Part shown: piece after piece, positions 10,001 through 56,844 of the stretch
How positions within the stretch are numbered: the stretch's first letter is position 1
Layout: each line of letters opens with the position of its first letter
NCBI RefSeq assembly: GCF_004135345.1
Contig: NZ_CP035495.1
Location: forward strand, 558,001-622,000
DNA length: 64,000 bases
DNA from: Xylanimonas allomyrinae
GTDB taxonomy: Bacteria; Actinomycetota; Actinomycetes; Actinomycetales; Cellulomonadaceae
Direction: 5' to 3'
Made by a program: the position numbers and the translations under genes
The notes under the pieces: generated by a model
Seen by the model: only the letters and a program-made list of their open reading frames with translations
Told to the model about the DNA's origin: nothing
Databases searched by the model: none

Positions 10001-10935
10001 GTGCTCGATCCGCAAGGAGTCGTGACCGTCGACGAGGAGGCGGTCGCCGCGACGCTCGGCATGCGGAGCGCTCAGGGCACCCGGTCGGGACCGGTGATGC
10101 TGCACGCGCTGCGCGGGTTCGTCGACGCGGGAAGCGCCGGGGTGATCGGTGCCACGCACCTGGTCACCGAGCTCGAGTCGACGCGCGTGGCGACGTTCGA
10201 CATCGACCAGCTTCTGGACTACCGCTCGAAGCGGACCTTCATGACGTTCGACGCGGACCGATGGACGGCCTACGACGAGCCGTTCCTCGCGATCGACCAC
10301 CTGCGGGACGGTGACGGCACGGGATTCCTGCTCTTGCACGGAGCCGAGCCCGACCTGCAGTGGGAGCGCGTGATCGCGGCGGTGCGGCAGCTCACCGAGG
10401 AGTGGGGGTCTCGCTCATGGTGGGGTTCCACGGTGTGCCGATGGGAGTGCCCCACACACGCCCGCTCACGCTCACGGCGCACGGCACACGTCCGGGTCTG
10501 ACGGAGGACTACACCTCGTTCTTCGGGACCGTGAAGGTGCCCAGCTCGATGGGCGCGCTGCTCGAATACCGCATGGGCGAGGCGGGGCACGACGCGCTCG
10601 GGTTCGTCGTCCACGTGCCGCACTACCTGGCGTCCTCGCAGTACACGCCGGCAGCCGTGGTGGCGCTGCAGCACGTGGAGCGGGCGACCGGCCTGAACCT
10701 CGTCACGGGTCGCCTCGCCGCAGCTGCGGCCGACGCGACGGCGGAGGTCGAGCGGCAGGTGCGCGACTCGAGCGAGGTGCGTGCCGTCGTGACGGCCCTC
10801 GAGGAGCAGTACGACAGGCTTGCGCGCAGCCTCGGCAGGACGAGCCTCCTGGCGGAAGCCGCGCCCATCCCGACGGCAGACGAGCTTGCGGCGGAGTTCG
10901 AGCGGTTCCTCGCCCAGCAGGCCGACGACGAGTGA
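10001..10935 (+). pseudogene. PAC2 family protein, reading frame broken at a G run
   Basis: The N-terminal half (VLDPQGVVTVDEEA through VRQLTEEW) is in one frame and the rest (VSLMVGFHGVPMGVPHTRP through FLAQQADDE) in another. Joined, they give about 311 residues of a PAC2 (proteasome assembly chaperone 2) family protein, a widespread actinobacterial family of uncertain role. The break is at GGGGG, 10404-10408: one more G would give the continuous EEWGVSLMV. The GTG at 10001 has AAGGAG 5 bases upstream. The gene is probably intact in the cell, because other genes here show the same missing-G signature. Confidence 0.8.
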
Positions 10936-11039
10936 ACCGGCCTGTGGAGAACCCGTGACGCGGGGCGTGTGACGTGCAACACTGCATCGACGGTCGGCCA
11001 ACAGGCCCGCCGGAGGCAGCAGGAAGGTCGAGCACGAGC

Positions 11040-11243
11040 ATGGCGCAGGGTTCTGTGAAGTGGTTCAACGCGGAGAAGGGCTTCGGGTTCATCGCCCAGG
11101 ACGGCGGCGGTGCCGACGTCTTCGTCCACTACTCCGCCATCCAGACGAACGGCTACCGCACGCTGGAGGAGGCGCAGCGGGTCGAGTTCGAGATCACGCA
11201 GGGTCCGAAGGGCCCGCAGGCGGACCAAGTCGTCCCGCTCTGA
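11040..11243 (+). CDS. Cold-shock protein (CspA family)
   Basis: 67 aa, a single cold-shock domain. RNP1 is KGFGFIAQD and RNP2 is DVFVHYSAI; the start [10 protein letters not shown] and end [10 protein letters not shown] are typical. These proteins bind single-stranded RNA/DNA and melt structure at low temperature or in growth transitions. The ATG at 11040 is set by the family; AGGAAGG lies 12 bases upstream, a loose spacing. Confidence 0.95.
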
Positions 11244-11258
11244 CGACGCCGTCACGCC

Positions 11259-11274
11259 GGCCGTGGGCGCGGCC
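11259..11274 (+). terminator. Possible hairpin after the cold-shock gene
   Basis: A 5-bp stem GGCCG/CGGCC with a 6-base loop lies 15 bases after the stop, between convergent genes. It is short, so the call is tentative. Confidence 0.35.
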
Positions 11275-11352
11275 CGGTTCCCCGATGCGTTCGGGCGCCG
11301 GGTCGCACCCGCGGCCGCGTCGTGTGCGCGTCGTGGCGGCGGCGTTCGCCGC

Positions 11353-12372
11353 TCAGAGCGGGCGGGCCGTCGCGATGAAGCGTTCCAGCCCGGGGCCTGT
11401 GACCGGCTGGGCCGGGACCGGGAGGGCGCGCAGCGCGCGCGCCAGCGCCGGGACGCTCAGGTCGGGTGTCTCGGGTTCGATCGCTGGACCCTGGCTGGCG
11501 CTCAGTCCGGGTTCGGGTCCGGGCGCGGCCGGGAGGCCCGTGCCACCCCCGGCGCGTGAGTCCGTGGACGGCGACACGTCCGTCTGGGCGTGCTGCGCGC
11601 GAGCCGGTCGCGAGACTGACCGCACTGCGGCGAGGACCAGGTTGCCGTATCGGCGGCCCTTGAGGATGCCGGGCTCCGCGACGAGCGCGAGCCGTCCCTC
11701 GGCCACCGCGTCGGGTCCGAAGGCCGCGGCGAGCGTCGCCAGCTCGCGCCGGACGCGCGCGAGCGGCGGGCGGTCGGCACAGTTGACGAGATAGATCCCG
11801 CCGGGCCGCAACGCCTTGACGACGTGCTCGGCCGTCTCGCCCGTGACGAGGTGCTCGGGTGTGGCGTCGCCCGCGAACACGTCCCGGACGACGACGTCGT
11901 AGCTCCCCGGCGCCGCCGACGCGACGGCGCGGGCGGCGTCGTCGGCCCGCAGGCGCAGACGCGGGGCGCGCGGCAGGTCGAACCACTCGCGCACGAGCAC
12001 GACGAGTCGGGCGTCGATGTCGACCGCTACCTGGCGTGACCCCGGGCGCTCGGCGTCCCAGCACCGGGCGAGCGCGCACCCCGCGGCCCCCAGGTGCAGC
12101 GCGCGCAGCGGGCCCGAGGTCGTAGCGCAGACGACGGCGTTCATCTGCTGCATGTACTCGAAGGCGAGGAACCCGGGGTCGGCGAGGTCGAGGTAGGAGC
12201 TCGGGACTCCGTTGACCTGGAGGGTCATGCGTGCGGAGTGGTCGGGGTCGGGCAGGACTTCGGCGGTCCCCGTGTCGATCGGCACGGGCCCGGAGGGGAG
12301 CGCGCCGCGGGATGTCGGTGGCTCGGCGGACGATGGGGAGCGTCTCGAGGGACGCGCGCTGCGGCGGGCCAT
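11353..12372 (-). CDS. Spermidine synthase-like (PMT fold) protein
   Basis: 339 aa. The core (about residues 50-230) has a Rossmann-like nucleotide-binding segment LHLGAAGCALARCWDA, VDIDARLV, and VVRDVFAGDATPEHL in the place of the polyamine synthase catalytic loop. YLVNCADRP and LKGRRYGNLVLAA follow. This matches actinobacterial spermine/spermidine-synthase-domain proteins that lack the rest of a polyamine pathway nearby; the true substrate is unknown. Oddity: a Ser/Pro/Gly-rich stretch (about 245-290) splits the C-terminal part ([15 protein letters not shown] to end), lengthening it compared with usual relatives. The start has no good Shine-Dalgarno. Confidence 0.7.
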   Translation of the reverse strand: MARRSARPSRRSPSSAEPPTSRGALPSGPVPIDTGTAEVLPDPDHSARMTLQVNGVPSSYLDLADPGFLAFEYMQQMNAVVCATTSGPLRALHLGAAGCALARCWDAERPGSRQVAVDIDARLVVLVREWFDLPRAPRLRLRADDAARAVASAAPGSYDVVVRDVFAGDATPEHLVTGETAEHVVKALRPGGIYLVNCADRPPLARVRRELATLAAAFGPDAVAEGRLALVAEPGILKGRRYGNLVLAAVRSVSRPARAQHAQTDVSPSTDSRAGGGTGLPAAPGPEPGLSASQGPAIEPETPDLSVPALARALRALPVPAQPVTGPGLERFIATARPL

Positions 12373-12412
12373 AGGTCAAGTGTCCCAAGGGTTGTGAACC
12401 ACACGGTCACAG

Positions 12413-12442
12413 TTGACAAGTATCGAACAGGTGTTCGAGACT
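12413..12442 (+). promoter_or_regulatory. SOS promoter of the HEPN-dinB operon
   Basis: A consensus -35 TTGACA (12413-12418), an 18-bp spacer and GAGACT (12437-12442) as a possible -10. A perfect SOS box TCGAACAGGTGTTCGA (12423-12438) sits inside the spacer, so LexA would occlude RNA polymerase. Confidence 0.8.
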
Positions 12443-12479
12443 GGTGGGGCGGGGTGACCCGCCGGACGGGAGGTGCGAG

Positions 12480-12986
12480 ATGACCCTCAAGCACACGGCG
12501 CGGCGCCGGACGGCAGCATCGGCCGTCGGCGAGCGAACGGCCCCTTCTGCGCCGGCTCCCGTGGCGCCGCCGGTCGTGCCGGGTGCCGTCGCGCGTCTGC
12601 TCGTGCTGGCCGACGCCGAGCTCGCTGAGGCGGCCGACGCGAGCGACCCCGCCGACCGCTTCCTGCACGCACATCTGGCGGCACTGCGCAGTGCCGCGGC
12701 CGTGGTGGAGCTGCGGGGGCAGCCCGGGCCGCGTTCGGGGGTGCGCACGGTGTGGGAGATGCTGGCCAAGGTCGAGCCGTCGCTGGCCGCGTGGTCGGTG
12801 TACTTCGCTTCCGGCGCCCGGCTGCGAGCGAGCGTGGATGCCGGGCACGGGGAGGCGGTCAGCGCCGAGCGGGCGGCAGAGCTCGTCGCGTGCGCCGAGG
12901 ACTTCCGCGACGAGGCCGCGATGATCGTCGACCCCGCCGCCGGGTTCTCCCGTCCGCTGCGCTGGGCGGCGACGGCGGCCTCATGA
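12480..12986 (+). CDS. SAV_6107-type HEPN domain protein in the SOS operon
   Basis: 168 aa. A basic, Ala/Pro-rich leader of about 40 residues precedes an all-helical HEPN-like domain (VARLLVLADAELAEAA to the end). The segment DRFLHAHLAALRSAAAV contains R-x4-H, the catalytic signature of HEPN RNases. It resembles the SAV_6107 HEPN family found beside Y-family polymerases in actinobacteria; the function is not established. GGGAGG lies 6 bases before the ATG. Its stop overlaps the dinB start (ATGA), so the two are translationally coupled and both sit behind the SOS box. Confidence 0.7.
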   Translation: MTLKHTARRRTAASAVGERTAPSAPAPVAPPVVPGAVARLLVLADAELAEAADASDPADRFLHAHLAALRSAAAVVELRGQPGPRSGVRTVWEMLAKVEPSLAAWSVYFASGARLRASVDAGHGEAVSAERAAELVACAEDFRDEAAMIVDPAAGFSRPLRWAATAAS

Positions 12987-14275
12987 GCAAGGCCCCGCGG
13001 TCGGCGACCGCGAACCGCGACTGGGGCTCGGACGAGTCCCGCACCTCGATCATGCATGTCGACATGGATGCGTTCTTCGCAATGTGCGAGCTCGCGCGCC
13101 GGCCCGAGCTGCACGGCCTGCCCGTGATCGTCGGGGGACGTGAGCGCGGGGTCGTCCTGGCCGCGACCTACGAGGCGAGGGCGTTCGGAGTGCGGTCGGC
13201 AGTCCCGATGGCCTCAGCCCTGCGCTTGTGCCCGCAGGCCGTCGTCGTGCCGCCCGACCACCGTCGGTACACCGACGTCTCGCGCGCGATCATGGCGACG
13301 ATGGGGGAGATCACGCCGATCGTCGAGCAGATCAGCATCGACGAGGCGTTCCTCGACGTGTCGGGCGCGCGCCGTCGCCTCGGGCCGCCGACGGCGATCG
13401 GTGCGCGCCTGCGCGCCCACGTTCAGGCGGTGCACGGTGTGACCTGCTCTGTCGGCATCGCGAAGAACAAGTTCCTCGCCAAGCTGGCGTCGACCCATGC
13501 CAAACCCGACGGCATGCTGCTCGTGCCCGCGGAAGCCTCGGTGCCGTTCCTGCGCACGCTTCCCGTCGGGGCGCTGTGGGGTGTCGGGGAGAAGACAGAG
13601 GCGAGTCTTGCGAGGTGGGGGATCACCACGGTCGCGCAGGTCGCGGACACCGACGTCGCGACGCTGCAGGCTGCGGTGGGTCGCGTCCAGGGCGCGCACT
13701 TGCACGACCTCGCCTGGGGCCGTGACCCGCGGCCCGTGGTCCCGGTCAGCCACGAGCGCTCGATCGGCAACGAGACGACGTTCGGCGCGGACCAGAGCGA
13801 CCTGCGCGCGGTCGAGTCGCGAGTCCTCGAGCTGTGCGACAAGGTCGCGGCGCGGTTGCGCGAGCAGAGCGTGGTCACGCGCACCGTCGCGCTCAAGGTT
13901 CGCACGAGCGACTTCCGCACCCTGACCCGGTCCCGCACGCTCGACGGCCCGACAGACGTAGCGCGCGAGCTCTACCGCGTGGCGAGAGAGCTGCTCGCAG
14001 GGGTCGATCTCCAGGGGCTGCCCGTGCGGTTGGTGGGCGTGCGAGCCGAGAGCCTGCAACCGCGCGCCGGGCTGGCGGAGCAGCTCACGCTGGACGAGGC
14101 GAGCGCGGAGCGGCCTTCCGCGCAGCGCGACGCCGAGCTCGCTCTGGACGCCGTCCGGCTGCGGTTCGGCAAGTCCGCGATCGGGCTCGGACCAGGCGGA
14201 ATGGCGTCGGCGAGCAGGCGCGCGGTGGAGGATGGCGAGCGTCTCCGCGACTCCCGACACGCCCCGACCGGGTGA
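12983..14275 (+). CDS. dinB: DNA polymerase IV (Y-family, translesion)
   Basis: 430 aa. Catalytic acidic residues are in HVDMDAFFA (near residue 26) and SIDEAFLDV (about 120). GIAKNKFLAKLAS, the helix-hairpin-helix VGALWGVGEKTEASL, and a little-finger domain with SHERSIGNETTF follow. EQLTLDE near the C-terminus is a likely beta-clamp binding motif. It copies damaged DNA at low fidelity. The ATG overlaps the upstream HEPN gene by 4 bases; a frame continuing upstream inside that gene is a shadow. Damage induction is implied by the SOS box. Confidence 0.95.
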   Translation: MSKAPRSATANRDWGSDESRTSIMHVDMDAFFAMCELARRPELHGLPVIVGGRERGVVLAATYEARAFGVRSAVPMASALRLCPQAVVVPPDHRRYTDVSRAIMATMGEITPIVEQISIDEAFLDVSGARRRLGPPTAIGARLRAHVQAVHGVTCSVGIAKNKFLAKLASTHAKPDGMLLVPAEASVPFLRTLPVGALWGVGEKTEASLARWGITTVAQVADTDVATLQAAVGRVQGAHLHDLAWGRDPRPVVPVSHERSIGNETTFGADQSDLRAVESRVLELCDKVAARLREQSVVTRTVALKVRTSDFRTLTRSRTLDGPTDVARELYRVARELLAGVDLQGLPVRLVGVRAESLQPRAGLAEQLTLDEASAERPSAQRDAELALDAVRLRFGKSAIGLGPGGMASASRRAVEDGERLRDSRHAPTG

Positions 14276-14400
14276 AGTTGCTCCCGGAGCCGAGTCCGAG
14301 GTGCGTCGTGCGATCGGACGGTGTTCGCCTGATTACCCCAACGTCTCGCGGCGGGCCTATCCTGTTGTGAGGAAGAACTCCACCAGACGAGGGGGTCGCG

Positions 14401-14799
14401 ATGCCTCTGTCCGAGTACGAGCAGCGCGTGCTGGAACAGATGGAACGCGCCCTGACGAGCGACGATCCCCGCCTCGCCAATACCCTCCAGTCCTCAGGCC
14501 GTCGCCCCGTGGCGCGCTACGTGGTGGCCGCCATCGGACTGATCGTCGGCCTGCTCGTTCTCGTGCTCGGCGCGGCGAAATCGAACGTCATCGTCGGTGT
14601 CGTCGGATTCGCGGTGATGTTCGCCGCCGCGGCCTGGGCCTTCGCGTTCGTGCCGCGCTCCCGGGGCCCGGCCGGGGCCGTCCGTGACGACGGCAGTGTC
14701 GCAGCGCGACCAGCGCGAAAGCGCGGACGCCAGGGCAGGGCGGGCCTCATGGCGCGATTTGAGGCGCGCTGGGACCGTCGGCGCGACCTCGGGCGCTGA
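14401..14799 (+). CDS. DUF3040 membrane protein
   Basis: 132 aa. The N-terminal motif MPLSEYEQRVLEQMERALTSDDP is the DUF3040 signature. Two adjacent hydrophobic helices follow (about residues 41-60 and 63-82), then a basic tail. The family is actinobacterial, often found near the dcw cluster, and has no assigned function. GAGGGGG precedes the ATG. The 241 bases after it (14800-15040) hold only G+C-rich inverted repeats such as GGGCCG/CGGCCC around 14847-14860, facing the convergent transglutaminase gene. Confidence 0.85.
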   Translation: MPLSEYEQRVLEQMERALTSDDPRLANTLQSSGRRPVARYVVAAIGLIVGLLVLVLGAAKSNVIVGVVGFAVMFAAAAWAFAFVPRSRGPAGAVRDDGSVAARPARKRGRQGRAGLMARFEARWDRRRDLGR

Positions 14800-15040
14800 G
14801 GGCGCCCTACGTCCCGGAAGAACGAGCCGCAGTACCCGGGCACGAGGGGCCGAACGGCCCGAGCGGCCCGCGCGGAACGTGCCCGTGGAGTGACGTCGGC
14901 GGCGGAGTTGCGCACCCGTGGCGACGCGCTCCCGAGCAGCGCATGCGCCCCCACGGCGCGCGGCGAGTTCCGCGCGAACGGTTCGCGGCCCGCGAGGTCC
15001 GGCGCGTGGTGCCCGCGCGGTCCTCATGCTGCGCAGGTGC

Positions 15041-17332
15041 TCAGCGCCCGGCGCCGACCCGGGACCGACCGACTGCCGCGACTCCCGCGGTGACGTCGCG
15101 CGTGAGCTGGGCGAGCCGGTCCTTGCCGAGCGGATCGACCTGCGCGGCGTAGCGCTCGGCCTCCAGCGCGCCCGCGAGCGAGGTGAGCGCGTCCTGCACC
15201 GGGTCCGGGATCGCCTCGCCTGTGCGGGCAGCCCAGGCGCGCGCCACCTCCTGAGGCGCTTGGCGCGGGGTCGTCGCGGTCGGGAGAGTGATGCCCGCTC
15301 CGGCGAGCGCCGTCACGACGCGTACCCACGCGGACTCGGCGTCGAGCGGGGGACGCACGGACCGACGGCGCAACCACAGGACCACGATCGCCGCTCCGGC
15401 CGTGAGCGCGAGGCCCGCACCGACGAGCCAGCCGCGCGAGGACGACGTCCCCTCCACGACCTGCTCCTGGGCGCGCGGTGTGGCCGGGGAGGTGCCTGGT
15501 GCGGGCGCCTGGGCCGTCGCTGCGGTCGTGGGCGCCGTGCGCTCGTCGGCGGTGGGCGTCGGTGCGGGGCTCGCGCCGACGCTCGACGGGTCGGCGTAGG
15601 AGGGGACGGCGCCGGCCTGGATGGCGGGCGTCGGTTCGAAGCGGACCCAGCCGCTGCCGGGGAAGTAGAGCTCGGGCCAGGCGTGCGAGTCCTCGCCCGT
15701 CACGGTCCACCGGACGCCACCGTCGACGGGGGTGCCGGGTAGGTAGCCGACGCCCAGGCGGGCCGGGATGCCGAGCGTGCGGGCCAGCGTCACCATCGTC
15801 GTGGCGAACTGGACGCAGAAGCCCTGGCGCTGCTGGAGGAAGTCCCACACGGGGTCGCCGGTCTCCCCGCGCGGCACCTCGACGTCGTAGGTGAAGCGTG
15901 TGGCGTCGCGCAGGTACGACTGGAGGGCGACGGCGCGGTCGTAGTCGGTGGCGGCGTCGCCGACGATCTCGCGGGCGGTGCGCGCGATGTCGGCCTCATG
16001 GCTCGTCGTCGGCACGGAGAGGAACTCGTCGGAGACGACGTCGGCGCCTGCGGGCGCGTCCCGCAGGGCGTCGGCGGTCAACGAGCGCGGGTGGACGTCG
16101 AGCGTGAAGGTGTCGCCGTCATGCGTCGTGGGGCCTCCGACGACCTCGTCGCGGTCGGCGTCGTAGCGCCAGCCACCGTCGGCCGTGACGGCGCGCGGCT
16201 CGATCGACAAGGGCAGCCGGTCCTCGCGCATGGTGCCGACGGTGACGTCGACGCGTGTCGGCTCTTCGGCCGGGCGCGTCTCCTGAGGGAAGAGGAGATC
16301 GCCGGGTTCGAACTCGACGCCGTCGACGTCGGGACCGCCGGTCCAGTGACGGCCGTCGAACGACGACAGGGTCAGGAGCCTCAGCGGTCCGACGGTCGAG
16401 CCGGTCGAGGTCCGGTAGCTCAGCACCTCCGCGGTCGAACGCGTGCTGAGCGAGCGGGCCATGTCGAGGTCGTCGGCGAGCCGCACGGAGCGTGCCGTCG
16501 TCGTGAACAGGGATGTCCAGGATCCACCGGACCCGGTCGTCCCCCCGGCGGCCGCCGAGGCCGCGAGCGCAAGCGCGGTGACGCCGGCAGCCGTGACGGT
16601 CGTCCGCGCCGCCCGCCGCCACTCGGCTTGCCGTACCTGCGCTCCGACGCGCAGGTCGTGCGTGCGTCGTGTCGCGGGCGGCGCGTCGAGCGCGAGGCCG
16701 AGCAGGAGCGTGGCCGCGGTGACGGCGAAGGTCACGCGCGGCACGCCGCCCGTGAGCACGAGCTGGGGGAGCCACAGCACCAGCACGGCGGCGGCCGCGA
16801 GCAGCGGGTGTCGCAGGCCTGAGGCGAGCGCGTCCGCCGCGAGGAGCACCCCGAGCGCGCCGCCTACGCACAGCAGGGCGACGGGCGCGGTGGCGACGAC
16901 GGGAGCGACCTCGCCGCGGATGATCTCGCCGGCCGCCCCGAGCAGGTCGCCGAGGCGCGAGAACGACCCGGCGTCCGGGAGCCACTGCGTCGTCCCGCCG
17001 ACTCCCCCGAAGCGCGCAAGCAGGTACCAGGCCGCGACGAGCGTGCCCACCAGAGTGGGGACGCTCGAGGACGTGCCGCCGTCGTCGCGCGGGACACGCC
17101 CGATCTGCGCGCCGGCCCGGGCCGCGGCGGCGACCCGGGCCCGGCGCCCGCCGATCGCGGCGCGTGTCGCGGCGATCGCGGCCCCGACCAGCAGCACACC
17201 ACCGACGCCGACGGCAGGCCACGGTGGCAGCACGATCGTGCGCAGCCCGAGCATGGACGTCAGGACTGCGAGCATCACCAGCCCGGTCGAGACGGCGAGT
17301 CGCACGGTCGCCGGGGTCCTGGCCGGGATCAT
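15041..17332 (-). CDS. TgpA-like membrane transglutaminase-domain protein
   Basis: 763 aa. Several N-terminal membrane helices (to about residue 230) are followed by an extracytoplasmic region with a transglutaminase core: Cys in GFCVQFATTM, His in EDSHAWPELYF, and Asp-region WVRFEPTP. A Ser/Pro/Thr-rich linker, one membrane helix (WLVGAGLALTAGAAIVVLWL) and a cytoplasmic tail complete it. It is the third gene of the moxR-DUF58-transglutaminase operon and its ATG overlaps the DUF58 stop (ATGA). Homologues are thought to crosslink or process envelope proteins; the substrate is unknown. An intact G6 run encodes GlyGly in its N-terminal third. Confidence 0.85.
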   Translation of the reverse strand: MIPARTPATVRLAVSTGLVMLAVLTSMLGLRTIVLPPWPAVGVGGVLLVGAAIAATRAAIGGRRARVAAAARAGAQIGRVPRDDGGTSSSVPTLVGTLVAAWYLLARFGGVGGTTQWLPDAGSFSRLGDLLGAAGEIIRGEVAPVVATAPVALLCVGGALGVLLAADALASGLRHPLLAAAAVLVLWLPQLVLTGGVPRVTFAVTAATLLLGLALDAPPATRRTHDLRVGAQVRQAEWRRAARTTVTAAGVTALALAASAAAGGTTGSGGSWTSLFTTTARSVRLADDLDMARSLSTRSTAEVLSYRTSTGSTVGPLRLLTLSSFDGRHWTGGPDVDGVEFEPGDLLFPQETRPAEEPTRVDVTVGTMREDRLPLSIEPRAVTADGGWRYDADRDEVVGGPTTHDGDTFTLDVHPRSLTADALRDAPAGADVVSDEFLSVPTTSHEADIARTAREIVGDAATDYDRAVALQSYLRDATRFTYDVEVPRGETGDPVWDFLQQRQGFCVQFATTMVTLARTLGIPARLGVGYLPGTPVDGGVRWTVTGEDSHAWPELYFPGSGWVRFEPTPAIQAGAVPSYADPSSVGASPAPTPTADERTAPTTAATAQAPAPGTSPATPRAQEQVVEGTSSSRGWLVGAGLALTAGAAIVVLWLRRRSVRPPLDAESAWVRVVTALAGAGITLPTATTPRQAPQEVARAWAARTGEAIPDPVQDALTSLAGALEAERYAAQVDPLGKDRLAQLTRDVTAGVAAVGRSRVGAGR

Positions 17333-19703: not shown

Positions 19704-19729
19704 GGGAACCTCCGCGTCGAGGGCGAGAA

Positions 19730-24324: not shown

Positions 24325-26022
24325 GTGACATCCCCGTTCGACCGGATCCGGCCCGAGGCCACCACGCCACGCCGGGTGCGGGACCTGGCCCACACGTTCG
24401 ACCTGAGCGTCGCCGCAGGTCTGCCGCCCGGTGACGGAGGGCCGACGGTCACCTCGGTCGCCTCGGACAACCGAGTGGTCGCCGACGGCGACCTGTTCGT
24501 CGCGCTGCCCGGCGCTCACGCCCACGGTGCCCGGTTCGCCGCCGACGCCGTCGCCCGAGGGGCGCGCGCGATCATCACCGATGGAGCAGGAGCGGCGATG
24601 CTCGGGGCGGCCACGGGTGTGCCGGTGCTCGTCGCGGCCGACCCCCGCACGGTGCTCGGCCCGGTCGCCGCGTGGGTCTACGGGGCGCCCGGAGAGCACC
24701 TGACGACGTTCGCCGTCACCGGCACCAACGGCAAGACGACGACGACCTACCAGCTCGACCACCTGCTGCGCGCGCTGGGCTTCACCTCAGGGCTCGTCGG
24801 CACCGTCGAGATGCGTTCGGGCGACCGCGTCCTGCCGTCGCGTCTGACGACGCCCGAGGCCGCCGACCTCCAGGCGCTGCTGGCGGCGATGCGCGAGGAC
24901 GGCGTGCGCACGCTGGCCATGGAGGTCAGCTCGCACGCGCTCGCGCTGCACCGCGTCGACGGCGTGCGCTACGGCGTCGCCGGGTTCACCAACCTCAGCC
25001 AGGATCACCTCGACTTCCACGGCGACCTGCAGTCGTACTTCGCGGCCAAGGCACTGCTCTTCACACCCGAGCACGCGCGCTGCGGCGTCGTGGTCGTGGA
25101 CGACGCCTGGGGCGAGCGCATGGCGGAGGTCGCGACCATCCCCGTCGCGACGCTGCGCACCACGCCGGCGCGTGACGACGGCGGCCACGCCGCCGACTGG
25201 GTCGTGACCGACGTCGAGCCGCACGGCACCGGGTCGGCGTTCACCGTGACGCACCGCGACGGCCGGTCGCTGCGCACCTCGACGACGCTGCCGGGCGGCT
25301 TCAACGTCGCCAACGCGGCGCTCGCACTGGTCATGGTGCTCGAAGGCGGGGCACACCTGGAGGACGTCGCCGAGGCGCTCGACGCGTCGGGCGGGCTCGC
25401 CGCCGTCGTCCCGGGGCGGATGGAGGTCGTGGGTGCCGGTGGAGCGGACGCGCCGCGGGTCGTCGTGGACTTCGCGCACAACACCGAGGCGCTCGAGCTC
25501 GCGCTGGGCGCGTTGCGGCCCACCACGCCCGGACGCCTGATCGTCGTGTTCGGCGCGACGGGAGACCGGGACGCGGGCAAGCGGCCGGCGATGGGCGCGG
25601 CCGCGGTCGCCGGCGCGGACGTCGTCGTGGTGACGGACGACGACCCGCACGGCGAGGACGCGGCCGCGGTGCGGGCCCAGGTCATGGCCGGAGCGCGTGC
25701 GGCGCGGGCCGTCGCCGCGCAGGCTGGACCCACGCACACCGGGTCCGTCCCGTCGGCTCCGGCGTCCGTACCGACCCCATCCGCGCGGCATCCTCAGGCC
25801 CGTACGGTTGCCGTGCACGAGATCGCGCCGCGGTCCGAGGCGATCCGCGTGGCCATCGCCCAGGCAGCCGAGGGGGACACGGTGCTCGTGGCCGGCCGCG
25901 GGCACGAGACCATCCAGGACGTCGCGGGGGTCGACGTCCTGCTCGACGACCGGGTCGAGGCCCGGGCCGCACTCGCGGCCCGGCCGGGCACCGGCAGGAA
26001 CGAAGGGACCACCACCCCATGA
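24325..26022 (+). CDS. murE: UDP-MurNAc-tripeptide synthetase MurE, probably Lys/Orn-type
   Basis: 565 aa. The ATP-grasping motif is TGTNGKTTTTYQL (about residue 134), with EVSSHAL, NLSQDHLDFHG, and the C-terminal GRGHETIQD. It adds the third amino acid of the stem peptide to UDP-MurNAc-L-Ala-D-Glu. At the substrate-specifying position it reads TDDDPHGED, where diaminopimelate-adding enzymes have DNPR with an Arg that grips the extra carboxylate. His there argues for L-Lys or L-Orn. A low-complexity insert (about residues 463-492) follows this motif. The stop overlaps murF (ATGA). Confidence 0.92.
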   Translation: MTSPFDRIRPEATTPRRVRDLAHTFDLSVAAGLPPGDGGPTVTSVASDNRVVADGDLFVALPGAHAHGARFAADAVARGARAIITDGAGAAMLGAATGVPVLVAADPRTVLGPVAAWVYGAPGEHLTTFAVTGTNGKTTTTYQLDHLLRALGFTSGLVGTVEMRSGDRVLPSRLTTPEAADLQALLAAMREDGVRTLAMEVSSHALALHRVDGVRYGVAGFTNLSQDHLDFHGDLQSYFAAKALLFTPEHARCGVVVVDDAWGERMAEVATIPVATLRTTPARDDGGHAADWVVTDVEPHGTGSAFTVTHRDGRSLRTSTTLPGGFNVANAALALVMVLEGGAHLEDVAEALDASGGLAAVVPGRMEVVGAGGADAPRVVVDFAHNTEALELALGALRPTTPGRLIVVFGATGDRDAGKRPAMGAAAVAGADVVVVTDDDPHGEDAAAVRAQVMAGARAARAVAAQAGPTHTGSVPSAPASVPTPSARHPQARTVAVHEIAPRSEAIRVAIAQAAEGDTVLVAGRGHETIQDVAGVDVLLDDRVEARAALAARPGTGRNEGTTTP

Positions 26023-27508
26023 TCGAGCTGACCGCGTCCGAGGTCGCGCAGGCGACAGGAGGCCGGCTCGCGGCCGACCCGCAGGTGCGGGTCACCGGCC
26101 CGGTGGTCGCGGACTCGCGGCTCGTGGAGCCGGGGTCGCTGTTCGTCGCCCTGCCGGGAGAGCGCGTCGACGGCGCCGACTTCGCTTCCGGTGCCGTCGC
26201 TGACGGTGCCACGCTCGTGCTGACCGAGCGCGAGCTCGACGTGCCCGCCGTCGTCGTCGCCGACGTGCGCAGGGCGCTGGGCGACCTCGCACGGGCCGTG
26301 CTCGAACGGCTGCGCGCGCAGAACCCCGACGTCCACGTCTTCGGCATCACGGGATCGGTCGGCAAGACGACGACCAAGGACCTGCTGGGTCTGCTCGTCC
26401 AGGGGGAGGACCCGCGTGACACCATCGCGCCGCGCGGCTCGTTCAACAGCGAGGTGGGCCTGCCGCTCACGGTGCTGCGCGCGTCGGCCCGGACGCGGCA
26501 CTTCGTCATGGAGATGGGCGCGGACCGCCCCGGCGACATCGCCTACCTGGCCACGATCGCGCCGCCGCAGATCGCGATCGTGCTCGCGGTCGGCACGGCG
26601 CACATCGCCAACTTCGGCAGCATCGAGGCCATCGCCAACACCAAGGCCGAGGTCATCACCGGCCTGCGCCCGAGCTCCGTCGCCGTGCTCAACGCCGACG
26701 ACGAGCGCGTGCTCGGGCTCGCGCCGCGCGCGACCGGGCTGGGCCACCGCGTGGTGACGTTCGGCCGCGTTCCGTCGGCGGACGTGCGCGCCGAGGACGT
26801 GCGTATCGACGCGACGGGCCGGGCGTCGTTCACGCTGCGCGTCAGCGGCCGGCTTGCCGCCGCGGGCGAAACCGCCGAGGACGTGCGTGTCCCGGTGACG
26901 CTGCGCCTGGTGGGCGAGCACCACGTGTCGAACGCGCTCGCTGCCGCGACGGCCGCGATCCTCGCGGGGCAGGCGCCGGCCGTCGTGGCCGAGCGGCTCG
27001 GGCGGGCCGAGCCGGGCAGCCCGCACCGGATGGCCGTGACCGAGCGCCCCGACGGGATCACGGTCGTCGACGACGCCTACAACGCGAACCCCGAGTCGAT
27101 GCGCGCCGCGCTCCGGTCCTTGGCCGTCATGGCGGGGCGTGAGCGGCGCTCGGTGGCCGTGCTCGGGGAGATGCTCGAACTGGGCGAGGGGTCGCGCGTG
27201 GCACACCACGAGATCGGCCTGCTCGTGGTGCGATTGAACGTCAAGCTCCTCGTCGTCGTCGGTGACGGGGCGTACCACATTCACGAGGGAGCGCTCCAGG
27301 AGGGCTCCTGGGGGAGGAGAGCGTGTTCGTGCCCGACCTCGACGCCGCGCGTGCCGTGCTCGACGAGCGCCTGCGCCCCGGAGACGTCGTGCTGGTCAAG
27401 GCATCCAACGGCTCGGGACTGTGGCGTCTCGGTGACGAGCTCGCCGCGGGCGAGGTCGGCGGGCGCGCCGCTGCCGGCGAACCCGGGGATCGGAGTGCCG
27501 CGCGGTGA
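26019..27508 (+). pseudogene. murF: UDP-MurNAc-tripeptide--D-Ala-D-Ala ligase MurF, frame broken at a G run
   Basis: About 496 residues when joined. The main part has the P-loop GITGSVGKTTTKDLL, NSEVGLPLTVL, MEMGADRPGDIAYL and DDAYNANPESMRAAL. The frame fails at GGGGG, 27310-27314; one more G continues it as EESVFVPDLDAARAVL to [14 protein letters not shown], the expected C-terminus, with a stop that overlaps mraY (GTGA). Uncorrected, the frame runs on without a stop into murD. MurF adds D-Ala-D-Ala and should be essential, so the lesion is almost certainly a sequencing error. Confidence 0.9.
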
Positions 27509-36760: not shown

Positions 36761-37602
36761 GTGCGAGTCGTGACGGCCCAGCCGGCCGACGCACCGGCGC
36801 CGTCCGGGTGGTCGCAGGACTCCCTGCTGCCGGACGGCGTCGGCGCGGGCCTGTTGCGCGTCGAGCTTGGCGAGGGGGTCGTCGCGGGCTTCACCACCCG
36901 GCACGGCGGAGTCTCCCCGGCGCCATGGTCCTCGCTCGACCTCGGGCTCGGCACGGGGGACGACCCCGTGCGCGTGCGCGCGAACCGCGCACGGGTCAGC
37001 GCGTGGCTCGGCGCGCCGGTCGCGTACGCCGCACAGGTGCACGGCGACGACGTCTTGCTTCTTGGCGAGGCCGAGCGCGCGGAATGGGCGTCCGAGGCCC
37101 CGCCTGTCGCCGCGGGACAGGCCGACGCCGTCGTCACGACGGCCGGCGGACTGGGCCTGGGCGTGCTCGTCGCCGACTGCGTGCCCGTGCTGCTGGCCGA
37201 TCCCGTGGCCCGCGTCGTCGGCGTCGTCCATGCAGGGCGAGCGGGTGTGCGGCTCGGCGTCGTGCACCGTGCCGTCGACGCGATGATGGCCGCCGGTGCG
37301 ACGGCGTCACGGCTGCGCGCCGCCGTCGGACCAGCCGTGTGCGGGCGGTGCTACGAGGTGCCCGCGGACCTGCGCGAGGACGTCGCGGCCGTCGTGCCGG
37401 CCGCGCACGCCACGACCCGTGCCGGCACGCCGTCTCTGGACCTGCCTGCGGCCGTGCTCGCGCAGCTTGCCGAGCGCGGCCTCGCGGAGTGCACGCACGT
37501 CGACCGGTGCACGCTCGAGGACCCCGACCTGTTCTCCCACCGGCGGGCGACCGCCGCCGGGGGACCACCGGACGACAGGCAGGGGTGGTCGTGCTGGCGT
37601 GA
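36761..37602 (+). pseudogene. pgeF: Polyphenol oxidase/purine nucleoside phosphorylase family protein (YfiH/PgeF), frame broken at a G run
   Basis: About 280 residues when joined. It carries [67 protein letters not shown] and a C-terminal [11 protein letters not shown]. Metal-binding Cys and His residues are present. The frame breaks at GGGGG (37559-37563); a sixth G restores [12 protein letters not shown] and a stop at 37602. Uncorrected, the frame runs into the sepF leader. The family removes misincorporated L-Ser from MurNAc peptides in E. coli (PgeF) and acts on purine nucleosides. The start is either GTG 36761 or 36770. Confidence 0.85.
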
Positions 37603-40016: not shown

Positions 40017-40688
40017 ATGTCTACCGAACCCGACGCCACGCCCGTCGCACCTGAGTCCACGTCGGCGCCCTCCGGGAGCCGCCGACTCGCGGTCGCCACA
40101 TTCGTGCTCGCGGCGGCCGTGCTCGCCGTCGACCAGCTCACGAAGTGGTGGGCGCTGACGGCCCTCGAACGGGGTGCGCCCCAGCGGCAGGTGATCGGGG
40201 ACTTCATCACGTTCCGGCTCGTGCTCAACCCGGGCGCGGCCCTCAGCATCGGGTACTCCTACACCTGGGTGCTGACCATCGTGGTGATCGCGGTCGTCGT
40301 CGTCATCGTGCGCATGATCGGGCGCATCCGCTCGCGTGCCTGGGCCGTGACGCTCGGGATGCTGCTCGGCGGCGCCGTCGGCAACCTCGCCGACCGGCTG
40401 TTCCGCGAGCCTGGCTTCGCGCACGGGAAGGTGGTCGACTTCATCGGGTACGCGGACTGGTTCACCGGGAATGTCGCCGACATCGCCATCGTGGCCGCTG
40501 CCGTGCTGCTCGCGCTGCTGTCCATCCTGGGGATCGGCCTCGACGGGCGCCGCGAGGGACACGGCGCGGCCGGCAAGAAGGCCGACGACCGCGACGCCCA
40601 CGAGGCGGACGGCGCAGAAGGCGCCGCCGAGGCCCGGGGCGCTGACACGACCGAGACGACGACCTCCGACGCGGAACCCGAGGCCTGA
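40017..40688 (+). CDS. lspA: Lipoprotein signal peptidase (signal peptidase II)
   Basis: 223 aa, four membrane helices. Motifs are [22 protein letters not shown], and the two catalytic Asp in [10 protein letters not shown] and [11 protein letters not shown]. It cleaves prolipoproteins after lipidation of the +1 Cys; candidate substrates in this window are the Rieske protein and the serine protease. The acidic, charged tail (about residues 178-223) goes beyond the usual length near 165. The stop overlaps the next ATG by one base. Confidence 0.94.
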
Positions 40689-41619
40689 TGACGCTGCGGA
40701 CCCTCCCGGTCCCCGACGGGCTCGCGGGCGAACGCGTCGACGCCGCGCTCGCCCGCATGCTCGGCTTCTCGCGCACGCAGGCCGCGGAGCTCGCGTCCGC
40801 CGGTGCGGTGACGCTCGACGGGCGTCCGGTCGGCAAGTCCGACCGCCTGCAGGCCGGGGGTGGCTCGAGGTCGACGTGCCCGACCCGTCGCAGGCGCCAT
40901 CCCCGGAACCCGAGCCGGTCCCCGGCATGGGCGTCGCGTACGAGGACGACGACGTCGTGGTGGTGGACAAGCCGGTCGGCGTCGCGGCGCATCCCTCGCC
41001 CGGCTGGACCGGGCCGACGGTCGTCGGGGCCCTCGCGGCCGCGGGGTACCGCGTCTCGACATCGGGTGCCGCCGAGCGCCAGGGCATCGTGCACCGGCTC
41101 GACGTCGGCACGTCGGGGCTCATGGTGGTCGCCAAGAGCGAGGCCGCCTACTCGGGGCTCAAGCGAGCCTTCAAGGAGCGAACCGTCGAGAAGGTCTACC
41201 ACGCGCTCGCCCAGGGACACCCCGAACCGACGGTCGGCACGATCGACGCGCCCATCGGCCGCCACCCGAGCAACGACTGGAGGTTCGCCGTCGTCGCCGA
41301 CGGCAAACCGTCGGTGACGCACTACGAGGTGCTGGAGATGCTGCCCGCGGCCTCGCTCGTCGAGGTTCACCTCGAGACCGGTCGCACGCACCAGATCCGC
41401 GTGCACTTCTCGGCGGTGCGTCACCCCCTCGTGGGTGACCTCACCTACGGCGCCGACCCCGTGCTGGCCTCGCAGACGGGGCTCACGCGCCAGTGGCTGC
41501 ACGCCGTCCGGCTGGGCTTCGAGCAGCCGGTGACGGGCGAGTGGGTCGAGGCGACGTCTGCGTACCCGGACGACCTCGCGCACGCACTCGAGTCGATCCG
41601 GGGCGCCTACGGTGGCTGA
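40688..41619 (+). pseudogene. RluA-family 23S rRNA pseudouridine synthase (RluD-like), frame broken at a G run
   Basis: About 310 residues when joined. The N-terminal S4 domain ([29 protein letters not shown]) is in one frame and the catalytic domain in another, beginning WLEVDVPDP. The catalytic Asp is in [18 protein letters not shown]; the family motif [20 protein letters not shown] follows. The break is at GGGGG, 40856-40860; a sixth G gives the continuous QAGGWLEV. The gene overlaps lspA by one base and the GNAT gene by 8, as expected for an intact operon member. Confidence 0.88.
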
Positions 41620-46990: not shown

Positions 46991-47020
46991 TTTCCCCGGA
47001 CTCGTGGTGTGCTCGGCACC

Positions 47021-47026: not shown

Positions 47027-47032
47027 GGCGCC

Positions 47033-48358: not shown

Positions 48359-48364
48359 CAGGCC

Positions 48365-48922: not shown

Positions 48923-49051
48923 GTGCTTCGGGCCCGCCCGCGTCGCGCCCGGGAGGCGCGGCCGTCGCGCGTAGACCGCCGCCTGGGGCCGCTCCGTCAC
49001 CCGGCCGCAACCGCGCTTCGGTCGACGACTGCGTTGCCCGGCGCCGACGTG

Positions 49052-50016: not shown

Positions 50017-50020
<4 letters not shown>
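49052..50020 (-). CDS. Membrane-anchored alpha/beta hydrolase
   Basis: 322 aa. A Ser/Ala/Arg/Pro repeat tail (about residues 10-45) and one membrane helix (VAVAAVVTIAVAVGLTFAA) precede the hydrolase domain. The oxyanion segment is FAHGNGGALSGRA, the nucleophile elbow is YLGESIGTGVVSGL (Ser in G-E-S-I-G), Asp in HGSADEVVPP, and His in GARHNDALW. This resembles ABHD17-like/YpfH-like serine hydrolases. The GTG overlaps the recQ stop (GTGA), so the two are coupled. Confidence 0.85.
49902..49961. repeat. 15-bp tandem repeat, four units, inside the hydrolase gene
   Basis: Four adjacent copies of GGCCGTGCACTCCCC (last three bases vary). Because 15 is a multiple of three, the frame is kept and encodes repeating GSARP/PSARP residues in the cytoplasmic tail. 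Copy number may vary between strains. Confidence 0.8.
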
Positions 50021-52410
<2,390 letters not shown>

Positions 52411-52534
52411 CCCGCGATCGTAGGCGGGGGCACCCACGCCCCGGTGCGGGGGGCGCCGCCCTGTGGACGACGCCGTCGCGCTGCGGTGCGACGGCCGGCT
52501 GGACCGTCACGGCGCACGTGGCCAAGATGGCGCC

Positions 52535-52963
52535 ATGACCGACCTCTCTCGCCGCCAGGTCCTGGGCGTGGCAGGCGCCACCGTGGCGGGCACCTGCCTG
52601 CTGTCGGCGTGCGCCGCACCGCGCGCCACCCCCCAGGACGACGCCTCGGCGGTCGCGGCACGCGGCGCGGGCACGCGCGTGGCGGGCCTGGCCGACGTCG
52701 CGGTCGGTGGCGCGCTCGCGGTCGACGTCGACGGGCACGCGCTGCTCCTGACCCGGCCGGCCGAGCGCGAGGTGCACCTGTTCAGCTCGATCTGCCCGCA
52801 CGCGGGCTGCAAGGTGGCGCCCGCCGGCGACGAGCTGGACTGCCCGTGCCACGGCTCGCGCTTCGCGCCGACCGACGGCGCCGTGCTCGGCGGACCCGCA
52901 GGGGCGCCGCTCGCGCAGATCCCGGTCGAGATCCAGGGCTCCGACGTCGTGCTGGCCGGGTGA
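52535..52963 (+). CDS. Rieske [2Fe-2S] lipoprotein exported by Tat
   Basis: 142 aa. The twin-arginine signal LSRRQVLGVAGATVAGTCLL ends in the lipobox LSAC, so the protein is folded with its cluster, exported and anchored by a lipid on that Cys. The Rieske ligands are C-x-H in CPHAGC and CPCHGSRF near the C-terminus. The small size and lack of a cytochrome partner set it apart from QcrA of the bc1 complex. An electron-transfer role is inferred; its redox partner is not visible here. No Shine-Dalgarno is obvious. Confidence 0.9.
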   Translation: MTDLSRRQVLGVAGATVAGTCLLSACAAPRATPQDDASAVAARGAGTRVAGLADVAVGGALAVDVDGHALLLTRPAEREVHLFSSICPHAGCKVAPAGDELDCPCHGSRFAPTDGAVLGGPAGAPLAQIPVEIQGSDVVLAG

Positions 52964-53030
52964 GGCCCGCCCGGGGCGGGCGTCCCGCTCGCCCTGTGAA
53001 CCGGCGTCCGGCCCTCCCGCGTGCCTTCCG

Positions 53031-53036
53031 TAGACT
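53031..53036 (+). promoter_or_regulatory. -10 box for leaderless hisC
   Basis: TAGACT lies 6 bases before the hisC GTG; promoter of the hisC-hisB-hisH-priA operon. Confidence 0.5.
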
Positions 53037-53042
53037 GACCCG

Positions 53043-54229
53043 GTGACGACCCACACCGCCGCGGCGACCCCCCGGGTCACCGCGCTGCCCCTGCGGCCCG
53101 AGCTCGCCGACGAGGAGCCCTACGGCGCCCCGCAGCTCGACGTCCCGGTGCTGCTCAACGTCAACGAGAACCCGTACGCGCCATCCGACGAGGTCGTCGC
53201 GACGATCGCCGCCGACGTCGCCGCCGCGGCCCGCGGCCTCAACCGGTACCCGGACCGCGACTTCCTGGGCCTGCGCGGCGACCTCGCCGCCTACCTGCGC
53301 CGCGAGTCGGGTGTCACCCTGCGCGCCGAGCAGGTGTGGGCCGCCAACGGTTCCAACGAGGTCATGCTGCACCTGCTGCAGGCCTTCGGCGGGCCCGGCC
53401 GCACCGTCGTCTCGTTCGCCCCGACGTACTCGATGTACCCCGAGTACGCGCGGGACACGCACACGCGCTGGGTCGCCGGTCGCCGCAACGAGGACTTCAC
53501 GCTCGACGCGGCCCACGCCGTCGAGACGATCGAGCGCGAGCAGCCCGCGGTCGTCCTGCTGACCAGCCCCAACAACCCGACCGGCACCACGCTGCCGCTG
53601 GACGTCGTGGAGGCCGTGCTCGATGCCGCGGCGCGCGTGCGCATCGCCGACGCTCCCGACGGCGCGGGGGCGGTCGTCGTCGTCGACGAGGCGTACGCCG
53701 AGTTCCGGCGTGCTGGGACGCCGTCCGCGCTCGCGCTGCTGGACGCCCACCCGAACCTCGCCGTCACGCGCACCATGTCCAAGGCGTTCGCCGCGGCCGG
53801 GCTGCGGCTGGGCTACCTGGCCGCGAGCACCGCGCTCGTGGACGCGCTGCGCGTCGTGCGCCTGCCGTACCACCTGTCGGCGATCACGCAGGCGGCGGCA
53901 CGGGCCGCCCTCAAGCACACCGAGTCGCTGCTCGCCCAGGTCGACGCGTTGCGCGCCGAGCGCGACGGGCTCGTCGCCTGGCTCCGGGCGCAGACCGGGA
54001 CCGGGGGCAGCCGCTCGTCGTCGCCGAGACCGACGCCAACTTCGTCCTCTTCGGCCGGTTCGCCGACCGCCACGCCGTCTGGCAGGGCCTGCTCGACCGC
54101 GGGGTGCTCATCCGCGAGGTCGGCCCGGCCGGATGGCTGCGCGTGTCCGTCGGCACCCCCGAGGAGACCGCGCGATTCAAGGACGCCCTGAACGACGTCG
54201 TCACCGCCATCACCGAGCAGGAGGCCTGA
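53043..54229 (+). pseudogene. hisC: Histidinol-phosphate aminotransferase, frame broken at a G run
   Basis: About 395 residues when joined. PLP-enzyme signatures are [49 protein letters not shown], and the PLP-lysine in [18 protein letters not shown]. The frame breaks at GGGGG, 54003-54007; a sixth G continues it as [18 protein letters not shown] to the end, and the stop then overlaps hisB by one base. It converts imidazole acetol phosphate to histidinol phosphate. The pathway around it is intact, which argues for a sequencing error. Confidence 0.9.
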
Positions 54230-54831
54230 TGGGTACCCGCACCGCCCGCATCGAGCGGTCCACCAGCGAGTCCAGCGTCGTCGTCGAGGTCGACCTCGAC
54301 GGCACGGGCCGCACGGACATCTCGACGTCCGTGCCGTTCTACGACCACATGCTCACCGCACTGGGCAAGCACTCGCTCATCGACCTCACGGTCAAGGCCA
54401 CGGGCGACACCCACATCGACGCCCACCACACGGTCGAGGACACCGCGATCGTGCTCGGCCAGGCGCTGCGCCAGGCCCTCGGCGACAAGCAGGGCATCGC
54501 ACGCTTCGGCGACGCGACCGTGCCGCTCGACGAGGCGCTGGCCCTCGCCGTCGTCGACGTGTCGGGGCGCCCCTACCTCGTGCACGAGGGCGAGCCCGCC
54601 GGGCAGGAGTACCACCTCATCGGCGGTCACTTCACCGGGTCGCTGACCCGGCACGTCCTGGAGTCGATCGCGCACCACGCCGGCATCTGCCTGCACGTGC
54701 GGGTGCTCGCCGGGCGCGACCCGCACCACATCGTCGAGGCCCAGTTCAAGGCACTGGCGCGCGCGCTGCGTGCCGCCGTCGCCCTCGACCCGCGCGTCGA
54801 GGGCGTCCCGTCGACCAAGGGAGCGCTGTGA
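54229..54831 (+). CDS. hisB: Imidazoleglycerol-phosphate dehydratase
   Basis: 200 aa, the single-function form. The manganese-binding signatures are [29 protein letters not shown], and [16 protein letters not shown]...[17 protein letters not shown]. It dehydrates imidazole glycerol phosphate. The ATG overlaps hisC by one base; the stop overlaps the next GTG (GTGA). Confidence 0.97.
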
Positions 54832-55328
54832 GCCAGGACCTGCCCGAGGACTTCGAGGTCCCCGACGACCTGTCCGCGCTCACCGCGCCGAGCGAGCGCG
54901 AGCTCGCCGTCCTGCTGACCCAGATCGCGGACGCCGAGGCGCTCGCGGCCGCCTGTGCGCTCGGCGAGCTCGACGTCGACGCGGCCCCGTCGCCCGTCGG
55001 CGCGCTGGCGGTGCTGCGCGACGCGTCGGGCGAGGCGCCCGAGCGGGCCGCCGCGGCGGTCTCCCAGCTCGTCGCCGGGGTGCCGCTCGTCCTGGTCACG
55101 CGCGCCGAGGGGCAGCTCACCGCGGTGCGCTACCAGGACGGCAAGCCTGCCGGGGAGCTGCCGCCCGGGCTGGTGCTGTCAGGGGCCCCCGAGGCGCTCG
55201 AGGACCTGCTCACGGGCCAGCTCGCGGTCCGCGACCTGCCGGGCGTGATCGCCTCGGCGGGCATCGGCCGGTTCAAGGCCATGCGGATGCTGACCGGCGT
55301 CGCGCGCAAGGCCAGGAAGAACAAGTGA
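54828..55328 (+). CDS. Uncharacterised protein within the his operon
   Basis: 166 aa, acidic N-terminus ([15 protein letters not shown]), Ala-rich middle, basic C-terminus ([19 protein letters not shown]). I recognise no domain. It overlaps hisB and hisH by 4 bases on each side, so it is translated with them. A role in the histidine pathway or its regulation is suggested only by position. Confidence 0.75.
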
Positions 55329-56065
55329 GCCTCCCACCGCTGCTGCCGCACGACGGCGTCGCGGCCGAGCTCAACCCGCGCGCCGCGGCCTCGCGAGGCG
55401 CCGGGTCGCGCGCGCCCCGGGTGGTCGTGCTCGACTACGGGTTCGGCAACGTCCGCTCGGCCGTGCGCGCGCTCGAACGCGTGGGCGCACAGGTCGAGCT
55501 CACCGCAGACAACGACGCCGCGCTGGCCGCCGACGGCCTGGTCGTCCCCGGCGTGGGCGCGTTCGCGGCGTGCATGGCAGGGCTGCGTGCGGTGCGCGGC
55601 GACCAGGTGGTCGACCGCCGCCTGGCCGGGGGCCGACCCGTGCTGGGCATCTGCGTGGGCATGCAGGTCATGTTCGACCGCGGCGTCGAGCACGGCGTCG
55701 AGTCCGACGGCCTGGGGGAGTGGCGCGGCGTCGTCGAGCGCCTGGACGCTCCCGTCGTGCCGCACATGGGCTGGTCCACGGTCGAGGTGCCCGCCGGTTC
55801 GCGGATCTTCGCCGGCGTCGAGCACGAGCGGTTCTACTTCGTGCACTCCTACGCCGCCCAGGCCTTCACCCAGGGGCACGACGACGCCGCCGACCCGCGC
55901 TTCACGCCCCCGCTCGTGACGTGGGCGCACCACGGCACGGCGACCCGCGGGGCGCGCTTCGTCGCGGCCGTCGAGGACGGCCCGCTCGCCGCCACCCAGT
56001 TCCACCCCGAGAAGTCGGGCGACGCCGGGGCGACCCTCCTCGAGAACTGGGTCACGTCCCTCTAG
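55325..56065 (+). CDS. hisH: Imidazole glycerol phosphate synthase, glutamine amidotransferase subunit
   Basis: 246 aa. The nucleophile Cys is in [11 protein letters not shown] and the catalytic His-Glu in [29 protein letters not shown] and GWSTVEVP are family signatures. It supplies ammonia to HisF, which is not in this window. The GTG start overlaps the preceding gene (GTGA) and adds about 30 residues before the usual N-terminus. Confidence 0.95.
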
Positions 56066-56113
56066 CACCAGCCGGTGGCCACTGCCGGGCCGCTGGGAAC
56101 GAACGGAGAACTC

Positions 56114-56844
56114 ATGACCGACCGCCTCGTGCTCCTGCCCGCCGTCGACGTCGCGGACGGCCAGGCCGTCCGCCTCGTCCAGGGCGAGGCCGGCTCTGAG
56201 ACGTCCTACGGCGACCCGCTGGCCGCGGCGCTCGACTGGCAGTCGGGGGCGCCGAGTGGATCCACCTCGTGGACCTCGACGCGGCGTTCGGTCGCGGCTC
56301 CAACGCGGATCTGCTCGCCGACGTCGTCGCCCGTCTCGACGTGCAGGTCGAGCTCTCGGGCGGCATCCGTGACGACGCCTCGCTCGAGCGCGCCCTGGCG
56401 ACCGGGGCGCGGCGCGTCAACATCGGCACGGCCGCGCTCGAGGACCCGGAGTGGACCGCGCGCGTCATCGACCGGTACGGCGACCAGGTCGCCGTGGGCC
56501 TCGACGTGCGCGGCACGACGCTCGCCGCGCGCGGCTGGACCCAGGAGGGCGGTGACCTGTGGGAGGTGCTCGCGCGCCTCGACGCCGCCGGCTGCTCGCG
56601 CTACGTGGTCACCGACGTCACCAAGGACGGCACGCTGCGCGGCCCCAACGTCGACCTGCTGCGCGAGGTCGCCTCGCGCACCCCGGCCGCCGTCGTCGCG
56701 TCGGGCGGCATCTCGTCGCTCGACGACCTGCGGGCGCTGCGTGCGCTGGTCCCCGGCGGGGTCGAGGGCGCCGTCGTGGGCAAGGCGCTGTATGCCGGGG
56801 CGTTCACGCTGCCCGAGGCCCTCGACGTCGCGGGCCGGCCGTGA
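56114..56844 (+). pseudogene. priA: Phosphoribosyl isomerase A (HisA/PriA), frame broken at a G run
   Basis: About 243 residues when joined. The N-terminus is [24 protein letters not shown], and after the break come [65 protein letters not shown] and [15 protein letters not shown]. The break is at GGGGG, 56245-56249; a sixth G gives [16 protein letters not shown]. Actinobacteria without trpF use this barrel for both histidine and tryptophan synthesis (PriA). The stop overlaps the next GTG, as in an intact operon. Confidence 0.9.

What the first reader, a model, noticed from the sequence alone, without database searches (positions are those of the whole stretch)
10404..56249. Seven genes broken by a missing G in a G run: shared lesion points to sequence error
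Reading frames break at GGGGG in PAC2 (10404-10408), murF (27310-27314), pgeF (37559-37563), the RluD-like synthase (40856-40860), hisC (54003-54007) and priA (56245-56249). In each, adding exactly one G restores a continuous family-typical protein and the expected stop overlap with the next gene. recQ (-) has two similar one-base losses (51831-51833, 50408-50412) plus a third of unclear place. murF should be essential and the his operon is otherwise intact, so decay is unlikely. Many other G5 runs and some G6 runs (ldh 3544-3549) are in frame, so neither motif alone is the cause.
Basis: partly seen in the sequence, partly recalled or inferred. Interest (0 to 1): 0.75.

Follow-up and report, generated by a model that had tools for sequence, protein, structure and literature searches.

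The report
Sequencing errors mimicking broken genes
The seven genes that look broken in this soil bacterium's genome are almost certainly intact in the living cell: the sequence on file drops one letter in some runs of repeated G or C, here and elsewhere in the genome, including the gene for its only RNA polymerase beta' subunit.

Summary
All seven genes (PAC2, murF, pgeF, the RluA/RluD-like synthase, recQ, hisC, priA) lose their frame in the window while syntenic same-genus relatives keep it. The lesion is not confined to these genes. In 623,004 bases aligned to the closest relative, clear calls for the window's genome were 39 single-base losses and no single-base gain; conserved coding DNA of the same alignments held 1 nonsense codon in 49,926. 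Loss frequency climbs with run length: 7 of 1846 runs of four, 18 of 422 of five, 12 of 41 of six. The hits include rpoC and tyrS, both single copy and split. The same loss is in untranslated RNA: one of three 23S rRNA copies lacks one G at four G runs that the other two keep. Four relatives show no lesion backed by two or more partners in the window region; a fifth (G003) shows two. Best explanation: homopolymer under-calling left in the consensus, as in unpolished long-read assemblies. The platform could not be checked. It is a warning about this record, not biology.

The parts
10404..10408 (+). Frame break inside the PAC2-family gene (about 10001-10935)
   Evidence: One base short relative to relatives; Pfam PAC2 split 1-100 / 97-215 over two frames
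27310..27314 (+). Frame break near the 3' end of murF (about 26019-27508)
   Evidence: All five relatives hold a run of six here, the window five; the murF match ends at profile position 371 of 418 and it is the only one of 6 matches over the cut-off in the genome; the short downstream piece alone had no Pfam match
37559..37563 (+). Frame break near the 3' end of pgeF (Cu-oxidase_4 family, about 36761-37602)
   Evidence: Pfam match 1-228 of 238 in the upstream frame, none for the downstream piece
40856..40860 (+). Frame break in the RluA/RluD-family pseudouridine synthase (about 40688-41619)
   Evidence: S4 domain and PseudoU_synth_2 domain fall in different frames
51831..51833 (-). First frame break in recQ: run of three where all five relatives have four or five
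   Evidence: 5 of 5 relatives; DEAD and Helicase_C domains in different frames
50400..50480 (-). recQ linker in which the frame seems to step twice more before the phosphoribosyltransferase domain; exact places not resolved
   Evidence: Codon-usage frame profile; tblastn frame change with 5 relatives; Pribosyltran domain in a third piece
54003..54007 (+). Frame break near the 3' end of hisC (about 53043-54229)
   Evidence: Aminotran_1_2 matched in the upstream frame, no match for the downstream piece
56245..56249 (+). Frame break in priA (HisA/TrpF bifunctional isomerase, about 56075-56844)
   Evidence: His_biosynth split 2-40 / 42-228; relatives in frame

Best explanation
The breaks are errors of the deposited assembly. 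The consensus dropped one base in some runs of G or C, mostly of four to six, as long-read sequencing does when homopolymer length is under-called and the assembly is not polished with accurate reads. The genes are inferred to be intact in the organism. Shown here: the losses, their dependence on run length, their presence in two chromosome parts, in essential genes and in one rRNA copy. Inferred: the platform and the true sequence.
For: 39 single-base losses and no single-base gain among clear calls for the window's genome over 623,004 aligned bases (26 in 178001-742510, 13 in 3400012-3680000); 5 calls on the G010 side. Loss frequency 0.4%, 4.3% and 29% for runs of 4, 5 and 6. One nonsense codon in 49,926. 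NCBIfam matches of the intact G010 orthologues of hit genes name rpoC, pheT, tyrS, murA, murF, glmM, NAD kinase, methionine aminopeptidase, smc, ftsK and pcrA twice. In the window's genome rpoC and tyrS are single copy and split (tyrS has one other match, weak and far below the cut-off), and one murF passes the cut-off. One 23S rRNA copy lacks a G at four G runs kept by its two sister copies; at two of these sites all nine copies of three relatives also keep it. G001, matched by size to X. cellulosilytica, finished with Sanger plus 454 and a stated error below 1 in 100,000 (PMC3035249, whole text), and G010 have no lesion with two or more supporters in the window region. Passages of PMC12007338 describe the same kind of profile in a long-read assembly: most indels are false deletions, most often after runs of four to five.
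Against: Raw reads and assembly method were not available, so the error is inferred. Losses fall more on coding-strand G than expected (28 of 37 against 21.4, z = 2.37). Runs of six are not clearly depleted in G000 against G010 (G6 60 in 544 kb against 62 in 601 kb; C6 31 against 51), although 29% of them seem to be shortened. That rate is rough, since intact runs near any frame-changing indel were left out. The four 23S losses sit in one copy, so errors cluster. In PMC12007338 A and T runs gave more errors than G and C runs, unlike here.
Confidence: 0.97

Rival explanations
1. Real recent mutations: a strain with high slippage in G/C runs (a mutator or a relaxed lineage) has truly lost these genes.
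For: Replication slippage also rises steeply with run length (recalled), and flanks of the lesions still show third-position bias, so the events would have to be recent.
Against: rpoC and tyrS are essential (recalled) and have no second copy. Slippage should also give gains, and decay should give nonsense codons: no single-base gain among clear calls and 1 nonsense codon against 39 losses.
Confidence: 0.015
2. Real short runs that are read correctly through transcriptional or ribosomal slippage, so that proteins are whole although the genes are out of frame.
For: The excess of coding-strand G over C would fit relaxed selection at runs on which RNA polymerase could stutter.
Against: Ten of 39 lesions are assigned to coding-strand C, and nearly all remaining runs are 3-5 bases. 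In E. coli and Buchnera all transcription insertions in runs were in A or T runs (PMC5574713, passages); programmed realignment sites often appear to be runs of eight or more, or two shorter runs combined (PMC3711429, passages). Relatives are in frame without a slip, and losses also occur in a 23S copy.
Confidence: 0.01
3. Phase-variable homopolymer tracts.
For: A single-base change of a G run switches the frame.
Against: Runs are short and mostly not kept as tracts: 5 of 21 sites keep a pure run in the nearest relative (my reading), near the 13-34% found for intact runs. Named targets are largely housekeeping genes.
Confidence: 0.005

Closest known systems
Homopolymer deletion errors in long-read bacterial assemblies (as in Kastor, PMC12007338, passages seen)
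   Same: Deletions dominate, are tied to short homopolymers and fragment genes
   Different: There A and T runs gave more errors than G and C runs at 59% G+C; here all 39 clear losses were assigned to G or C runs in a genome of about 73% G+C; platform of this assembly not known
Singleton frameshift genes of prokaryotic genomes (GeneTack study, PMC3711429, passages seen)
   Same: Frameshift in one genome, intact homologous protein elsewhere: the class those authors expect to be sequencing errors
   Different: Tested here also with rRNA copies, run-length dependence and nonsense counts

Membership tests
Homopolymer under-call artefact | Losses far exceed gains | tested here: met
   39 single-base losses and 0 single-base gains among clear calls; among the 104 unclear single-base losses and 26 single-base gains
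Homopolymer under-call artefact | Probability rises with run length | tested here: met
   7 of 1846, 18 of 422, 12 of 41 for pre-loss runs of 4, 5, 6; 2 of 39 losses were assigned to shorter runs; none of 12 C6 runs was hit
Homopolymer under-call artefact | Blind to gene importance and to coding status | tested here: met
   rpoC, tyrS, pheT and others hit; one 23S rRNA copy hit
Homopolymer under-call artefact | No strand preference | tested here: inconclusive
   Coding-strand G 28 of 37 against 21.4 expected, z = 2.37
Homopolymer under-call artefact | Reads disagree with the consensus | not testable with these tools
   No raw reads held
Pseudogene decay | Nonsense and other inactivating changes accompany frameshifts | tested here: not met
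   1 nonsense codon in 49,926 aligned codons, counted away from frame-changing indels
Programmed or tolerated transcriptional slippage | Slip site conserved among relatives | tested here: not met
   Relatives are in frame without a slip
Phase variation | Repeat tract kept at the site in relatives | tested here: not met
   At most sites relatives have interrupted runs; murF and recQ at 51831 keep pure runs

The most novel reading that the evidence does not exclude
The short runs are real and this lineage tolerates hundreds of -1 losses in G runs, rpoC included, because its RNA polymerase or ribosome routinely puts the frame back at G runs; the excess of coding-strand G losses would be its trace.
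Probability: 0.008. Interest if true: 0.95.

Novelty: not a real feature. Interest (0 to 1): 0.06.

Why it matters
It does not bear on biology but on the record: a user of this genome would wrongly conclude that it lacks intact rpoC, tyrS, murF, hisC and probably hundreds of other genes (extrapolated: 39 clear losses in 623 kb of 3.85 Mb scale to about 240). Pseudogene counts, pathway calls and marker-gene trees built on it would be off. Comparing rRNA copies, and losses against nonsense codons, is a quick general check for such records.

Tried and rejected
Loss of a C between G blocks (relatives often read GGGCGG where the window reads GGGGG) was considered instead of loss of a G. It is not needed: 5 of 21 lesions keep a pure run in G010 (my reading), against 34%, 21% and 13% for intact runs of 4, 5 and 6.

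A depletion of long runs in the window's genome was looked for. G runs show none; C6 runs are fewer than in G010.

A three-way comparison with looser matching (about 58 kb covered in both partners) gave 11 events for G000 (10 single-base losses, 1 gain), 1 for G010 and 7 for G001, some of them in rRNA or spacers. It was replaced by the phase test. One search was a first pass on 306,684 bases (22 against 2), replaced.

A first gene-caller for coding strand mis-assigned strands, and I discarded its 33 in-frame stops; it was replaced by a codon-usage strand call and a stricter stop count. The frame scan on stop-to-stop ORFs was noisy outside the confirmed sites.

G010 2420001-2640000 was not syntenic and not used. 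G000 742601-922000 had few matches and was dropped. One search set aside 104 unclear indels; one 4-base and one 2-base insertion called in G000 are not in the 39. Rfam found nothing in the window at gathering scores.

Full report
What the window is. The window is G000:C1:558001-622000 of a 3.85 Mb genome in two contigs, about 73% G+C in the parts examined. Ten other same-genus genomes were searched and all matched the murF region. One, G001, has the chromosome length that follows from the published figures for Xylanimonas cellulosilytica (PMC3035249), so the genus is Xylanimonas by inference. Five relatives (G010, G006, G001, G003, G002) are syntenic with the window at 72-89% DNA identity per long block.

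The observation. All six GGGGG sites and the recQ site are as described. In a scan of all six genomes the window carries seven frame breaks supported by three to five of five relatives: PAC2, murF, pgeF, the RluD-like synthase, recQ, hisC and priA. G010, G006, G001 and G002 have none with two or more supporters; G003 has two (one-supporter calls were printed for the window only). A six-way alignment, counting only clean sites, gave single-base losses: window 6, G003 3, G006 1, others 0; single-base gains: G010 1; G006 also had a two-base loss and a two-base gain. I take the G006 and G010 events to be non-coding but did not test that; indels near other gaps were tallied but not inspected.

The lesion is not confined to these genes. 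I compared 430,617 and 192,387 aligned bases from two parts of the chromosome with the closest relative, G010. Clear calls, made where third-position mismatches keep phase in one genome and jump in the other, were 39 single-base losses in G000 (26 and 13), plus one 4-base and one 2-base insertion. On the G010 side there were 5 calls, which I read as weak or at gene edges and did not pursue. Another 104 indels were unclear. By longest G or C run touching the gap, 37 of 39 losses fall in runs that would have been four or longer. Loss frequency by run length before loss was 7 of 1846 (four), 18 of 422 (five) and 12 of 41 (six); intact runs near other frame-changing indels were left out, so the rates are rough. 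In conserved coding DNA of the same alignments, away from frame-changing indels, G000 had one nonsense codon and G010 none in 49,926.

The genes hit include functions that a cell cannot lose (essentiality recalled). NCBIfam matches of the intact G010 orthologues name rpoC, pheT, tyrS, murA, murF, glmM, NAD kinase, methionine aminopeptidase, smc, ftsK, nuoF, rlmN and pcrA (two lesions), among others; 5 of 39 pieces had no match at 1e-10. In the window's own genome rpoC is one gene in two frames, tyrS likewise with one further weak match far below the cut-off, and only one murF passes the family cut-off. Copy number of the other genes was not checked.

A test outside proteins. Each of four genomes searched has three 23S rRNA genes. 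In G000 two copies have equal length and the third lacks one G at four G runs; at two of these sites all nine copies of the three relatives keep the base, at the other two one or two G003 copies also lack it. The 1500 bases upstream show two further single-G losses in G runs, one in each of two copies, and a few other small differences. G003 shows the same kind of loss between its copies; G010 copies show no run loss, only a dinucleotide-repeat difference and one substitution; G001 copies differ in their flanks, in part at a G run amid substitutions, and by one T and one substitution in the 23S. No reading-frame argument applies to rRNA, so decay of genes or rescue of a frame is a poor common cause.

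Explanation. A consensus that under-calls homopolymers accounts for the direction of change, the run-length dependence, the near lack of nonsense codons, the disregard for essentiality and the rRNA result. PMC12007338 (passages) describes this kind of profile in a long-read assembly, though with A and T runs hit more than G and C. Transcriptional slippage as a rescue is not supported: in the E. coli and Buchnera transcriptomes all insertions in runs were in A or T runs (PMC5574713, passages).

What does not fit fully. Coding-strand G is lost more often than expected (28 of 37 against 21.4, z = 2.37). By my count of that listing the part 178001-742510 drives it (22 G to 4 C), the other part is even (7 to 6). 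It may be chance or sequence context; it was not pursued. G6 runs are not visibly depleted. Platform and reads remain unchecked, so the last step is inference.

Noticed in passing
L186, L191, L196 (G003 23S loci) and the G003 region fetched: A second same-genus genome, G003, carries the same kind of single-base run losses (two supported in coding DNA of the window region, several between its rRNA copies), so its record probably shares the problem.
   Followed up: partly
L194 (G000:C1:1710467-1713568, minus strand): All four 23S run losses of G000 sit in one of three copies, which suggests uneven consensus quality between repeats.
   Followed up: partly
window 50020-52485, minus strand: The recQ-like gene carries a C-terminal phosphoribosyltransferase domain (PF00156) after a poorly conserved linker.
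   Followed up: partly
G000:C1:178001-742510 and 3400012-3680000: Losses fall on coding-strand G more often than the supply of runs predicts (z = 2.37); unexplained.
   Followed up: partly
   Followed up: yes
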